A program made the translations under genes and the position numbers. Shown in pieces: positions 13,205-17,677 of a DNA stretch of 64,000 nucleotides. Origin of the DNA: Pseudomonas leptonychotis (GTDB taxonomy: Bacteria; Pseudomonadota; Gammaproteobacteria; Pseudomonadales; Pseudomonadaceae); the NCBI RefSeq assembly GCF_004920405.1, contig NZ_RFLV01000001.1:868001-932000 (forward strand), given 5' to 3'. A model generated the notes under the pieces. The model saw nothing but the letters and a program-made list of their open reading frames with translations, was not told where the DNA came from and did not search any database. Each line of letters begins with the position of its first letter. Position 1 is the stretch's first letter.

Positions 13205-13432
13205 ATGACCTATTTGATCGATGCCTGGCTGGACCGCCCGCAGCCGTATCTACGTATTCTCAATCGCAACACCGGCGAAGTCTGCGCGCTGATTAAAGAA
13301 GAGGCACTGGATGAGCTGCGTGACCAGGGGGATTTGGATTTGCACGAACTAAACTCCAGCGAACCGCTGGTGCTCAAGGAGCTGGTGCGTAACTTATTTC
13401 TCTATTGCTACGCCCGCGCATTGCGCCCCTGA
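13205..13432 (+). CDS. Conserved small protein, probably iron-regulated
   Basis: 75-aa soluble protein beginning MTYLIDAWLDRPQPYLRIL with an acidic middle (EEALDELRDQGDLDLHEL). No signal peptide, no membrane segment and only one cysteine, near the C-terminus. GGGAG precedes the ATG by 7 nt. By position (after ispB, before fklB) and sequence it looks like P. aeruginosa PA4570, which I recall as a hypothetical protein strongly induced by iron limitation; the Fur-like site upstream agrees. Molecular function unknown. Confidence 0.85.
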   Translation: MTYLIDAWLDRPQPYLRILNRNTGEVCALIKEEALDELRDQGDLDLHELNSSEPLVLKELVRNLFLYCYARALRP

Positions 13433-14214: not shown

Positions 14215-14361
14215 CTACCCGCCTGCCGCGCCTTGGCGATTGCGCCGGCAGCGCTCAGAGCAGTACTTCACCTCATCCCAGCAGCGCGCCCACTTCTTAC
14301 GCCAGGCGAATGGCAAACCACACACCTGGCAAGGTTTGACCGGCAGCTCGGCCTTTTTCAC
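14215..14361 (-). CDS. DUF2256 small zinc-ribbon-like protein
   Basis: 48-aa protein with a GTG start that overlaps the TGA of the photolyase-family gene by 4 nt (GTGA), so translation is probably coupled. It reads [18 protein letters not shown], then [15 protein letters not shown], then SERCRR, with CxxC and CxxxC pairs able to bind zinc. This is the DUF2256 pattern, which I recall being found next to cryptochrome/photolyase-like genes; function unknown. The length and Cys spacing fit the whole family domain, so it is not a fragment. Confidence 0.85.
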
Positions 14362-15893
14362 AGCGCCTCACCGGCGTCCAGCCGTGCCAGCAGCTGCTCA
14401 CCGCGCTGCCACAGCCCTTGCTGTTTGGCCTCTGTCATTTTATCCAGGCCGCGGTAAATCATTCCTAGCCGATGGTTGCCGGTCAGCTGCTCGCGATGAC
14501 GCATAAGAAAGTGCCAATACAGCGCGTTGAAGGGGCAGGCCTGCTCGCCAACGCTCTCGGTCACTTTATACGCACAGTCACCGCAGTAATTGGACATGCG
14601 CTTGATGTACTGACCACTGGCGCAATACGGCTTGGAACCCAGGTAGCCGCCATCGGCATGCATGACCATGCCCAAGGTGTTGGGCAGCTCAACCCAGTCA
14701 AACGCATCCATATAAACCGCCAAGTACCAGTCGCAGACTTGGCTGGGCTCAATACCCGCCAGCAGGGCAAAGTTTCCGGTGACCATCAACCGCTGGATAT
14801 GGTGCGCATAGGCATGCTCCAGGGTCTGACCGATGGCTTGGCTCATGCACTTCATACGGGTTTTGCCGGTCCAGTAGAACTCGGGCAGCGGCCGGGTATT
14901 GCCGAAGGCATTGCGCTCGGCGTACTCGGGCATGTGCATCCAGTAGATGCCCCGCACGTATTCACGCCAGCCAAGCAACTGGCGGATAAAGCCCTCGGCA
15001 GCATTCAAAGGGACATGCCCACGCCAGTAAGCCGCTTCGACGTCCGCACACAGGCGGCGCACATCGAGCAGGCCAATGTTCAGCGCCGCGCTAATCCGCG
15101 CATGAAACAGAAACGGCTCACCAACCGCCATGGCGTCCTGATAGTCGCCAAAAGCCGGTAAGGCAAAGTCGAGAAAATGCTGCCATAACGCCTCAGCCTC
15201 AGCGTGGGTTACCGGATAGTCGAATGAAGCCAGGCTGCCGTAGTGATGACTGAAGCGCTCGGCCACCAGCGCCAGCACTTCCTGGGTAATGCCATCCGCC
15301 GGGAAGCGCGCCGTCATCGGCGCCTTGATCTGCTTGGGCAGCGCCTTGCGGTTTTCTGCATCAAAGTTCCAGGCGCCCCCCACCGGCGTGCCGTCGCCAT
15401 TCATCAACAGACCGGTCTTACGGCGCATCTCGCGGTAGAAGAACTCCATGCGCAGCTGCTTGCGCCCCTCGGCCCAGCGCGCGAACTCGCCGCGAGCGCA
15501 GATAAACCGGCTATCGGCATGCCAGGTAATCGGCACGCCGCAGCGCTTCAACTCATCTTCCAGGCGCCACTCGCCGCACTCTGTGATGTGCACCTCGACG
15601 GCCTGCAATTGCGCCGCCCAACGCTGCAGCTCGCCTGGCAGCGAGCCGCTGTTCTGCGCATCATCCAGTTTGACGTAATGCACCTGCCAGCCGCGCTTGC
15701 GCAGAGCCTCAGCAAAGTGGCGCATGGCACTGAAGATCAGTGCGATCTTCTGCGGGTGGTGCGGCACGTAATCGGTTTCCGCCGCCACCTCAGCGAGCAA
15801 TACCGCATCGCACTGCGGATCGAGCGCCAGCAAACTGGGCAGGTCAAAAGACAGCTGATCACCCAATACCAGGGCTAGCCGGGGAGCACTCAT
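14358..15893 (-). CDS. Fe-S bacterial cryptochrome / (6-4) photolyase family protein
   Basis: 511-aa flavoprotein of the FeS-BCP family (Agrobacterium PhrB, Rhodobacter CryB), which repair (6-4) photoproducts or act as light sensors using FAD. It starts [17 protein letters not shown]. Four cysteines, C349, C437, C440 and C453, match the [4Fe-4S] ligands of PhrB (C350, C438, C441, C454 as I recall). The family core [20 protein letters not shown], in which I infer FAD contacts, is present. Its ATG overlaps the stop of the nuclease upstream by 4 nt and its stop overlaps the DUF2256 start. A repair role is inferred. Confidence 0.9.
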
Positions 15894-17278
15894 AAAACAA
15901 CGACCTCGGTTTGCGGAAAGCGCCGTAAATGGCTAAGCAGGATGTGATAGGCATCCAGGCTGAATGCCTGGCCCGGTTGTTGGAGAGCGGCACCAATCAG
16001 CGCCGGATCATCAACCGTGGTCACGTGCCGCCATTGATCCAGCACATGCCAGTGGCTGAGCCCCTGCACCAGATCTCGCTCGACCCAAGCAACCGGCCCC
16101 GACCACGGCCAAGTGGCCACGCGCAGCTGCTCACAGGCGGCAAGCAACCGTAGATCATGGGCCTCGCGCGATTCGAGCCCGCAGCAGGCGCCCCGGCAGA
16201 CACCGAGCTGGGTAGCAAAACAGGCGCCGTTTCCCCGTTCCAAACCAAGCACGCGCAAGCACAGCTGGCTGCGGCTTGCCTCGCTGCGCAACCAGGCTTG
16301 CGCCTGACGCCGCGAGCGGAACAAGCCAACACTATTGCCCCCTATAACCGAGCAGCCCACCGCTTGCAGCTCAGGTTGCAGACCCTCAATGCCAGGTATA
16401 AGCACCCAGGTCAACAGGTCGCGCTGACGACGCAACTGACGGTTGTACAACGGCAACAGTCGCTTCACCTCAGCGGACTCCAGCAGCAACGCACCCAACT
16501 CTCCTGCCGTCGGCTGCACGCGAATATCACGCACCTGCTGAGCCATCTGCAGGCTACGTCGGCTGTGATGATCATTTTGAAAATGCGACTGCACGCGCTG
16601 GTGCAGGTTGCGGCTTTTGCCGACATACAACAGCGCCTGATTCTCACCGTAAAAGTAATAAACCCCCGGCCGCGAAGGCACGGCCTGTAGCCGCTCGGCC
16701 GTCAAAAACCGCGGCACGGCGGCTTTGCGCAGCTGACGCTGCAAGCGTTCTGCCTGCACCTGCGTCAGCAATGTGGACAACAACTGCCAAACTGCTTCGG
16801 CGTCAGGCAATGCACGGTGCTTAAAAAACCGGCTAATGCCCTGCCCCTCGCACAAGGCATCGAGGCTGTGACACGGCAAATCCGGCCAGACCGCACGCGC
16901 GAGCTGCAAGGTGCACAACTGCCGGTAGCGCACACGCAGCCCCGCCCGTGCGAAACCGTGACGCAGAAATGCATGGGCAACACGCAGGTTATGTCCGACC
17001 ACAACACGGCCTTCCAGGCAGCGCGCGAGCTCAACTGCAACCTCGGCAAAGCATGGCTGATCCGCCAGCTCTGCCGGCAATACACCGCAAACGTGCGACA
17101 CCCTGGCCGGCAGGGCACACGCTGGTTTCAGCAACCACACATGCCGCGCCACGACTAAGCCACCCTCCACATGCAGCACCGCCACTTCCCAGATGCTGTC
17201 CTTATCCGGGTGAAGCCCGGTGACCTGCACGTCGATAATGGCAAGCGCACGGGCAAACAGTGAGACCGCAGCAGTCAC
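15890..17278 (-). CDS. Degenerate DEDDh exonuclease domain fused to Cho/UvrC-like GIY-YIG nuclease
   Basis: 462 aa from a GTG at 17278, 4 nt after the DUF6482 stop; no ATG lies nearby in frame. Residues 10-170 have the DnaQ exonuclease fold, but motif I is IDVQVTG (Q18 where Glu is catalytic) and motif II is HNLRVAHAFL (A101 where Asp is expected); only H154 and D159 of motif III remain. Residues 203-290 form a GIY-YIG domain with GVYYFY, YVGKS, R228 and E267 intact. C340, C353, C361 and C365 follow the UvrC Fe-S spacing. Probable structure-specific repair nuclease; its target is unknown. Confidence 0.85.
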   Translation of the reverse strand: MTAAVSLFARALAIIDVQVTGLHPDKDSIWEVAVLHVEGGLVVARHVWLLKPACALPARVSHVCGVLPAELADQPCFAEVAVELARCLEGRVVVGHNLRVAHAFLRHGFARAGLRVRYRQLCTLQLARAVWPDLPCHSLDALCEGQGISRFFKHRALPDAEAVWQLLSTLLTQVQAERLQRQLRKAAVPRFLTAERLQAVPSRPGVYYFYGENQALLYVGKSRNLHQRVQSHFQNDHHSRRSLQMAQQVRDIRVQPTAGELGALLLESAEVKRLLPLYNRQLRRQRDLLTWVLIPGIEGLQPELQAVGCSVIGGNSVGLFRSRRQAQAWLRSEASRSQLCLRVLGLERGNGACFATQLGVCRGACCGLESREAHDLRLLAACEQLRVATWPWSGPVAWVERDLVQGLSHWHVLDQWRHVTTVDDPALIGAALQQPGQAFSLDAYHILLSHLRRFPQTEVVVL

Positions 17279-17282
17279 ATCG

Positions 17283-17588
17283 CTACCAGGAAGAATTAAA
17301 GGAAATGGGCACCCGCAGGACGTCCTGGGCGCCGTCATGCATGCCGCACATCTCGTCATGCACCACGGCATGCACCAGGTGAAAGGGGATGGGCGGCATA
17401 TCAGTGAGCATATCGCGCGCATGTTCGACCGAGCGCAGGTGCAGGGTTTTACCCTTGCCATCGCTGAGCGGATGGGCGCGGCCATCCATGTGCGCTTCAA
17501 GCAGGTAGATCCCCCCTTCAATGGAGATCAGGTTGAGCGCGTCGATATGCCCGGCATGGGCGTACAGCGACAAGTCTTGCAGGTTCAT
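17283..17588 (-). CDS. DUF6482 family protein
   Basis: 101-aa soluble protein starting MNLQDLSLYAHAGHIDALNL, with GGIYLLEAHMDGRAHPL and FHLVHAVVHDEMCGM. Matches what I remember of the pseudomonad DUF6482 family; function unknown. GAGGA precedes the ATG at 17588. It is the first gene of a run that continues into the GIY-YIG nuclease 4 nt later. The AT-rich upstream region holds a TTGTACAA palindrome (about 17638-17645) and several TTGTA repeats that could be operators. Confidence 0.75.
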   Translation of the reverse strand: MNLQDLSLYAHAGHIDALNLISIEGGIYLLEAHMDGRAHPLSDGKGKTLHLRSVEHARDMLTDMPPIPFHLVHAVVHDEMCGMHDGAQDVLRVPISFNSSW

Positions 17589-17677
17589 GGCGATGTCCTC
17601 GGCTAGCGAAGCTATACAAAAAATCATACAAATACAATTCTTGTACAATAAATCGAGAGCGCAAGGCAGAAAGCAAA

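What the first reader, a model, noticed from the sequence alone, without database searches (positions are those of the whole stretch)
14215..17588. Overlapping operon of two predicted Fe-S DNA-repair proteins plus DUF2256 and DUF6482
Seen: four minus-strand genes with a 4-nt gap, then ATGA and GTGA overlaps. The nuclease carries four Cys (340, 353, 361, 365) with spacing 13-8-4, close to the UvrC Fe-S spacing (12-8-4). The next protein is an FeS-BCP photolyase with Cys 349, 437, 440, 453. The last is a 48-aa Cys-rich DUF2256 protein. Inference: a compact light- or damage-linked repair module in which DUF2256 (zinc ribbon) assists one of the Fe-S enzymes. I know of no described system with this exact set.
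Basis: partly seen in the sequence, partly recalled or inferred. Interest (0 to 1): 0.72.

Follow-up and report, generated by a model that had tools for sequence, protein, structure and literature searches.

The report
Light-type repair operon with photolyase partner
A small block of Pseudomonas genes joins a light-driven DNA-repair enzyme to a tiny zinc-finger protein that travels with this enzyme family across many bacteria, plus an optional DNA-cutting enzyme; this points to an undescribed helper of a major class of repair enzymes.

Summary
The four genes are real and arranged as described. The order DUF6482 - Exo/Cho nuclease - prokaryotic (6-4) photolyase (FeS-BCP) - DUF2256 recurs in Pseudomonadaceae: all 10 full-length Exo/Cho genes among 248 family genomes sit directly before photolyase and DUF2256. 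The nuclease is optional: the two nearest relatives' loci lack it. Its exonuclease active site is lost here; GIY-YIG residues and four cysteines are intact. A conserved TGTACA/TGTATA footprint lies upstream, and the genome has a LitR-like gene with matching boxes at two other photolyase loci, so light control is likely. Main result: DUF2256 follows this photolyase family. In 240 genomes of a second class (probably Alphaproteobacteria) both are in 57, DUF2256 alone in 3, photolyase alone in 10; 30 of the 57 pairs are unlinked. It also accompanies photolyases without the Fe-S site (9 of 9 found). So DUF2256 looks like a partner of prokaryotic (6-4) photolyases, not of their Fe-S cluster. I found no paper saying this. 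The link is weak inside the genus (9 both, 5 and 6 alone, of 40). Protein contact and light phenotype were not tested.

The parts
17589..17660 (-). Upstream region with conserved footprint TTGTACAAGAATTGTATTTGTATGATTTTTTGTATAGC (four TGTA half-sites; TGTATT-N12-TGTATA): candidate LitR operator
   Evidence: best match to TRTACA-N12-TGTAYA has 2 mismatches (4 of 200 shuffles as good); near-identical in L066, L114, L115, L062, related forms in L058 and L116-L120; also in L129/L130
17283..17588 (-). DUF6482 protein, 101 aa, first gene of the operon; function unknown
   Evidence: PF20090 1e-19; upstream of 9 of 10 full-length Exo/Cho genes of the family sample and directly before the photolyase in nuclease-free loci
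15890..17278 (-). Exo/Cho nuclease, 462 aa: N-terminal DEDDh exonuclease domain with lost catalytic residues, GIY-YIG endonuclease domain, C4 region, Cho C-terminal domain; optional member of the operon
   Evidence: (PRK10545 excinuclease Cho 5.6e-59 over 195-452)
14358..15893 (-). Prokaryotic (6-4) photolyase of the FeS-BCP/CryB/PhrB group, 511 aa, Cys 349/437/440/453
   Evidence: PF04244 1.1e-85; solved relatives 4dja, 3zxs, 9hnk, 7ykn
14215..14361 (-). DUF2256, 48 aa, CxxC-x19-CSxxC zinc finger of the TRASH clan; predicted partner of the photolyase
   Evidence: PF10013 7.6e-22; invariant residues; model pLDDT 83; co-occurrence

Best explanation
A light-induced DNA-repair operon. Its core is DUF6482 - prokaryotic (6-4) photolyase - DUF2256. 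In the dark a class II LitR repressor holds the promoter; blue light releases it (inferred). The photolyase repairs (6-4) photoproducts in light (from its family). DUF2256 is a small zinc finger that binds the photolyase and tunes its DNA engagement or stability, as YacG does for gyrase (inferred; only co-occurrence is shown). In some Pseudomonadaceae a Cho-type nuclease lies between the first two core genes; it would nick 3' of bulky lesions that the photolyase has not reversed, with UvrB/UvrC finishing the excision (from the Cho family). Its exonuclease domain no longer has a complete active site but still looks under purifying selection, so it probably serves as a scaffold or DNA-binding part. 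Rough likelihoods: light-controlled operon 0.75; DUF2256 a functional partner of the photolyase 0.65; direct physical partner 0.45; Cho acting on the photolyase's leftovers 0.35.
For: Gene order: 10 of 10 full-length Exo/Cho genes among 248 family genomes, plus G163 and G161 and the named P. guineae and P. peli loci. DUF2256 and photolyase: 26 both, 1 and 4 alone, 119 neither of 150 phylum genomes (Fisher 8e-24) and 57/3/10/170 of 240 genomes of the class of G087 (9e-41), 30 of 57 unlinked. Controls: DUF1722, another light-operon gene, shows no link (7 of 27 DUF2256 genomes against 48 of 150 overall); among 66 genomes with PF03441 photolyase/cryptochrome genes the link holds (25/1/4/36). DUF2256 and photolyase are both kept in genomes of 1.2-1.7 Mb. 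Operator and LitR locus: with the consensus from PMC9758184 (passages). Nuclease motifs; purifying selection.
Confidence: 0.6

Rival explanations
1. DUF2256 is a passenger of a light-response regulon: it co-occurs with the photolyase because both belong to light-exposed bacteria, and acts elsewhere, for example as a zinc-finger regulator or on RNA.
For: DUF2256 is unlinked to the photolyase in 30 of 57 genomes and near other photolyases in some; five genomes of the genus have it without the photolyase.
Against: Another light-operon gene (DUF1722) shows no such link in the same 150 genomes; the link holds within genomes that have PF03441 photolyase/cryptochrome genes (25/1/4/36); a photolyase-family gene lies within 3 kb in 17 of 27 phylum loci (my count).
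Confidence: 0.25
2. One reading: DUF2256 helps build or protect the [4Fe-4S] cluster of the photolyase or the nuclease.
For: Cys-rich small protein in an operon with one known and one likely Fe-S enzyme.
Against: Nine photolyases that lack the Fe-S site come with DUF2256 (9 of 9); eight photolyases of the same class keep the four cysteines in genomes without DUF2256; Fe-S-containing PhrB was made in E. coli (PMC3204975, passages); the Cys pattern is that of a zinc finger (PMC4047054, passage).
Confidence: 0.07
3. Ordinary operon clustering: the nuclease, DUF6482 and DUF2256 share a promoter with the photolyase but have no common task.
For: The nuclease is absent from the two nearest relatives' loci and not next to this photolyase outside the family; DUF6482 has no known function.
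Against: Order kept across four genera at 43-75% nuclease identity to the window; all 10 full-length Exo/Cho of the family sample are in this place; one locus keeps only the GIY-YIG/C4 part there (L123).
Confidence: 0.25

Closest known systems
FeS-BCP / prokaryotic (6-4) photolyases (A. fabrum PhrB, R. sphaeroides CryB, Caulobacter and Synechococcus enzymes)
   Same: Full-length homology (E down to 3e-177 to solved structures) and the four Fe-S cysteines
   Different: None seen in the enzyme; what differs is the operon and the DUF2256 partner, not mentioned in the passages seen
Cho+Exo nucleases (ExoIII - GIY-YIG - C4 - Cho C-terminal domain; Dunin-Horkawicz et al. 2006, PMC1564403, passages)
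   Same: Same domain order and C4 region
   Different: Exonuclease residues incomplete in the window lineage and in 116 of the 120 listed database relatives; placed in a photolyase operon
Class II LitR light regulons of Pseudomonas (PplR/PmlR; PMC9758184, passages)
   Same: Own genome has a run of TudS-DUF1722 (rudS), MerR + B12-binding (litR), photolyase (phrB), SDR, flavin oxidoreductase, DUF1365 and cyclopropane synthase genes with exact TGTACA-N12-TGTACA boxes upstream
   Different: The operon here has a more degenerate four-half-site footprint; its control by LitR is inferred
YacG (DUF329) and FCS zinc fingers of the TRASH clan
   Different: No significant sequence match to solved structures; partner here would be a photolyase, not gyrase

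Membership tests
Prokaryotic (6-4) photolyase, FeS-BCP subtype | PF04244 domain and full-length homology to solved members | tested here: met
Prokaryotic (6-4) photolyase, FeS-BCP subtype | Four conserved Fe-S cysteines | tested here: met
   Cys 349, 437, 440, 453
Prokaryotic (6-4) photolyase, FeS-BCP subtype | Light-driven (6-4) repair, FAD and antenna chromophore | not testable with these tools
   Needs protein
Cho+Exo nuclease | Exo - GIY-YIG - C4 - Cho C-terminal domain order | tested here: met
   (Cho profile 195-452); the score is below NCBIfam's equivalog cut-off for stand-alone Cho (199.7 against 367)
Cho+Exo nuclease | GIY-YIG catalytic residues and four cysteines | tested here: met
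   Tyr207, Tyr218, Arg228, Glu267 and CCCC; which GIY-YIG residues are catalytic is recalled
Cho+Exo nuclease | Complete DEDDh exonuclease residues | tested here: not met
   D16 Q18 A101 H154 D159 in place of D E D H D
DUF2256 (PF10013) | Profile match and CxxC...CSxxC pattern | tested here: met
YacG-like gyrase inhibitor | Recognisable relationship to YacG or gyrase binding | tested here: inconclusive
   Weak fold match only
LitR-controlled operon | TRTACA-N12-TGTAYA operator upstream | tested here: inconclusive
   2 mismatches in the window, conserved footprint in relatives, exact site upstream of the photolyase in L067
LitR-controlled operon | Induction by light through LitR | not testable with these tools
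   Needs expression data

The most novel reading that the evidence does not exclude
DUF2256 is a dedicated zinc-finger partner of prokaryotic (6-4) photolyases, kept even where the Fe-S site has been lost, and in Pseudomonadaceae the pair has been joined to a Cho-type incision nuclease so that a lesion held by the photolyase in the dark is passed to nucleotide excision repair.
Probability: 0.3. Interest if true: 0.78.

Novelty: new variant of a known kind. Interest (0 to 1): 0.62.

Why it matters
DUF2256 occurs with high frequency among bacterial proteins of up to 50 aa (PMC11796252, passages), yet I found no function for it in the papers searched. Tying it to one photolyase family, independently of the Fe-S cluster, gives a direct test in model organisms: Caulobacter vibrioides and Synechococcus elongatus match both families in the control searches. 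It would also mean that this photolyase family usually works with a protein partner absent from the in vitro work I saw. The operon further offers a natural case of light repair and excision-type incision under one promoter, and shows that many Pseudomonas proteins annotated 'DNA polymerase III epsilon' or '3'-5' exonuclease' lack a complete exonuclease active site.

Tried and rejected
Fe-S maturation role for DUF2256: rejected by photolyases without the Fe-S site that come with DUF2256. A photolyase residue that tracks DUF2256 absence: none convincing; the best position differs by 0.36 in frequency, and the differences look lineage-bound (17 without, 46 with). Fe-S cysteines as a marker of DUF2256 status in the first 38 photolyases: no variation. 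A long protein containing DUF2256: none found in the 307-978 aa range searched (the search needs three shared 5-residue words); apparent long DUF2256 frames are, as I read them, overlapping open frames in GC-rich DNA. Solved relatives of DUF2256: only ribosomal L24 at E 0.12 or worse. Literature on R. sphaeroides cryB neighbours: RSP_3075, RSP_3076 and RSP_3077 are listed in the RpoH regulon tables of PMC3441632 (passages), but whether one of them is DUF2256 was not settled; PMC3320616 (passages) gave nothing on neighbours. Consensus promoter scan: no sigma-70 match at the operon start.

Counting limits: phylum, class, family and genus genomes are even draws, not all genomes, and are unnamed; the phylum and class samples share some genomes. 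That the class of G087 is Alphaproteobacteria is inferred from photolyase similarity to named loci. Fisher tests ignore phylogeny; 'unlinked' includes pairs on different contigs of fragmented assemblies. 83 photolyases were read for cysteines (63, 20 new), the last 20 picked partly for low score and all from genomes with DUF2256; not all 67 of the class sample were read, and 2 of its 10 photolyase-only genomes (G567, G640) were not. Three of the 19 family matches (G371, G270, G382, at contig ends) were not followed. The 120 relatives are the best of 932 and rich in one species group.
Full report
What is there. Four minus-strand genes lie at 17588-14215: DUF6482 (101 aa), a nuclease (462 aa, GTG start after a 4-nt gap), a photolyase of the PF04244 family (511 aa, ATGA overlap) and DUF2256 (48 aa, GTGA overlap). 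Pfam confirms all four. An FKBP-type isomerase gene lies 61 nt downstream and a UPF0114 gene upstream. The closest named records are two Pseudomonas MAGs, P. guineae and P. peli (photolyase 93-95% identical).

The photolyase belongs to the prokaryotic (6-4) photolyase group with solved members 4dja, 3zxs, 9hnk and 7ykn and has the four Fe-S cysteines of the FeS-BCP subtype.

The nuclease is an endonuclease with an eroded exonuclease domain. Four outgroups from other families of the order and three operon-bearing relatives (L116, L117, L121) keep the residues D-E-D-H-D; the window has D16, Q18, A101, H154, D159. Of 120 database relatives (the best of 932, rich in one species group) 4 keep all five. 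On the tree the losses fall in several separate places (window lineage; oleovorans-type lineage; L118 beside intact L116/L117; L122), and one locus (L123) keeps only the GIY-YIG/C4 part in the same place. The four GIY-YIG positions and the four cysteines are kept in 133 of the 136 sequences aligned; the other 3 have His at the first Tyr position and keep the rest. dN/dS of the exonuclease part is about 0.08-0.10 between the window and its two nearest fetched relatives (other parts 0.05-0.14); dS is above 1, so this is rough. So the fold seems to be kept for something other than exonuclease catalysis.

The operon. Among 248 Pseudomonadaceae genomes 19 match the nuclease at E 1e-40; 10 are full length, from four genera, and all 10 lie directly upstream of the photolyase and DUF2256, 9 of them with DUF6482 in front. 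Two more come from the genus sample (G163, G161). Five Cho-only genes (L124-L128) have no PF04244 photolyase in the flanks fetched (about 6 kb each side; L128 about 4-6 kb). Outside the family the five best nuclease matches are not next to this photolyase: in G050, G138, G046 and G070 the two genes are 87 kb or more apart, and G106 has no PF04244 match. The two loci nearest to the window by photolyase identity (L129, L130; 95%) have UPF0114, DUF6482, photolyase, DUF2256 and FKBP in the same order with no nuclease gene between DUF6482 and photolyase; G157 (L062) is alike. Hence the core is DUF6482-photolyase-DUF2256, and the nuclease is an optional member.

Control by light (inferred). Class II LitR regulators of Pseudomonas bind T(G/A)TACA-N12-TGTA(C/T)A (PMC9758184, passages). 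Upstream of DUF6482 a footprint with four TGTA half-sites is conserved while the flanks differ. The window's best match has 2 mismatches (4 of 200 shuffles do as well). Of 20 upstream regions tested, 1 had an exact match (L067), 4 had one mismatch (L116, L117, L118, L123), 5 two and 10 three or more; of 998 background stretches of 250 nt from nine of these loci 22 have two or fewer, the operators themselves included. In the window's own genome five exact places exist. Two lie 23 and 73 nt upstream of a run of genes for TudS-DUF1722 (rudS), MerR with B12-binding domain (litR), DNA photolyase, short-chain dehydrogenase, flavin amine oxidase, DUF1365 and cyclopropane synthase; one lies at the start of a second photolyase gene; two lie upstream of chemoreceptor (MCP) genes (domains). 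With up to one mismatch there are 14 forward and 17 reverse matches, against 5 and 7 for the reversed control pattern. Gene names rudS and litR follow PMC11417400 and PMC9758184 (passages).

DUF2256 follows the photolyase. In 150 genomes of the phylum DUF2256 is in 27, the photolyase in 30, both in 26 (Fisher 8e-24). In 240 genomes of the class of G087 (probably Alphaproteobacteria by photolyase similarity) DUF2256 is in 60, the photolyase in 67, both in 57 (9e-41); 25 pairs lie within 3 kb, 2 within 20 kb, 30 are farther apart or on other contigs. The two samples share some genomes. Controls: DUF1722, found in light-responsive operons (PMC11417400, passages), is in 48 of 150 genomes but only 7 of the 27 with DUF2256. 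PF03441 photolyase/cryptochrome genes are in 66, including 26 of the 27 with DUF2256; within those 66 the DUF2256-photolyase link still stands at 25/1/4/36. Against the link: in 40 genomes of the genus it is weak (9/5/6/20, p 0.017); one genome has DUF2256 in a locus like L069's but without the photolyase (L068), one has a truncated DUF2256 behind an intact photolyase (L236). Of 80 named photolyase loci 24 have DUF2256 within about 6 kb, some loci being cut by contig ends. In the 27 phylum genomes DUF2256 lies within 3 kb of this photolyase in 12, of a CRY-DASH-like or other photolyase only in 5, of neither in 10 (my count).

Not for the Fe-S cluster. Nine genomes (G516, G576, G559, G604, G589, G522, G453, G620, G435; eight of 1.2-1.6 Mb, G522 of 2.5 Mb) have photolyases without the Fe-S site: none has a cysteine at any of the four aligned positions, and the stretch with the second and third is deleted; 7 of the 9 do have a cysteine one residue beside the fourth position, too few for a cluster site. 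All nine have DUF2256. G453's photolyase frame is broken. Members without the cluster are known ('subgroup M', PMC9178010, passages). Conversely eight photolyases of the class sample, in genomes without DUF2256, keep the four cysteines. Fe-S-containing PhrB was made by expression in E. coli (PMC3204975, passages).

Mechanism, with what is shown and what is not. Shown by sequence: operon order, lost exonuclease residues, kept endonuclease residues, co-occurrence, independence from the Fe-S site, conserved upstream footprint. From the families: (6-4) photoreversal by the photolyase; 3' incision by Cho (PMC1564403, passages). Inferred: LitR control, a functional tie of DUF2256 to the photolyase, Cho acting on lesions held by the photolyase. 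That E. coli photolyase stimulates UvrABC in the dark is recalled, not looked up.

Novelty. Searches for DUF2256 (2 papers, passages seen in both, neither on its function), COG4338 (0 papers) and photolyase with zinc finger, iron-sulfur and gene neighbourhood (2 papers, listing only) showed no report of this link. The library holds open-licence papers only, so prior mention elsewhere is possible.

Noticed in passing
L269 4872-4895 and L270 4037-4060 (own genome C2:343871, C1:1900036): Two exact LitR-type boxes lie upstream of methyl-accepting chemotaxis protein genes (MCPsignal domains), suggesting light-controlled chemoreceptors.
   Followed up: partly
L267 837-8808 (own genome C4): A rudS-litR-phrB-SDR-flavin oxidase-DUF1365-cyclopropane synthase run with two exact boxes just upstream: a LitR-type light regulon in this genome.
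   Followed up: partly
L075, L082, L092, L093, L217, L228: Of 33 DUF2256 loci without the (6-4) photolyase nearby that were scanned, 6 have a CRY-DASH-like gene and 1 (L085) another photolyase directly beside DUF2256.
   Followed up: partly
L121 5078-6610 (G209): The photolyase gene is split over two pieces near residue 324 while the nuclease and DUF2256 frames are open.
   Followed up: no
L236 1365-1514 (G154): A truncated DUF2256 reading frame follows an intact photolyase gene.
   Followed up: partly
L068-L071: The photolyase-DUF2256 pair, or DUF2256 alone (L068), lies next to a cyclopropane synthase/DUF1365/flavin oxidase/SDR cluster in these four Pseudomonadaceae loci.
   Followed up: partly
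P0156, P0179, P0202, P0231 and others: Exo/Cho proteins named DNA polymerase III epsilon, excinuclease cho or 3'-5' exonuclease in databases mostly lack a complete set of exonuclease residues (116 of 120).
   Followed up: yes
window 13205-13432 (+): A 75-aa ORF between the FKBP gene and a polyprenyl synthase-like gene has no Pfam match.
   Followed up: no
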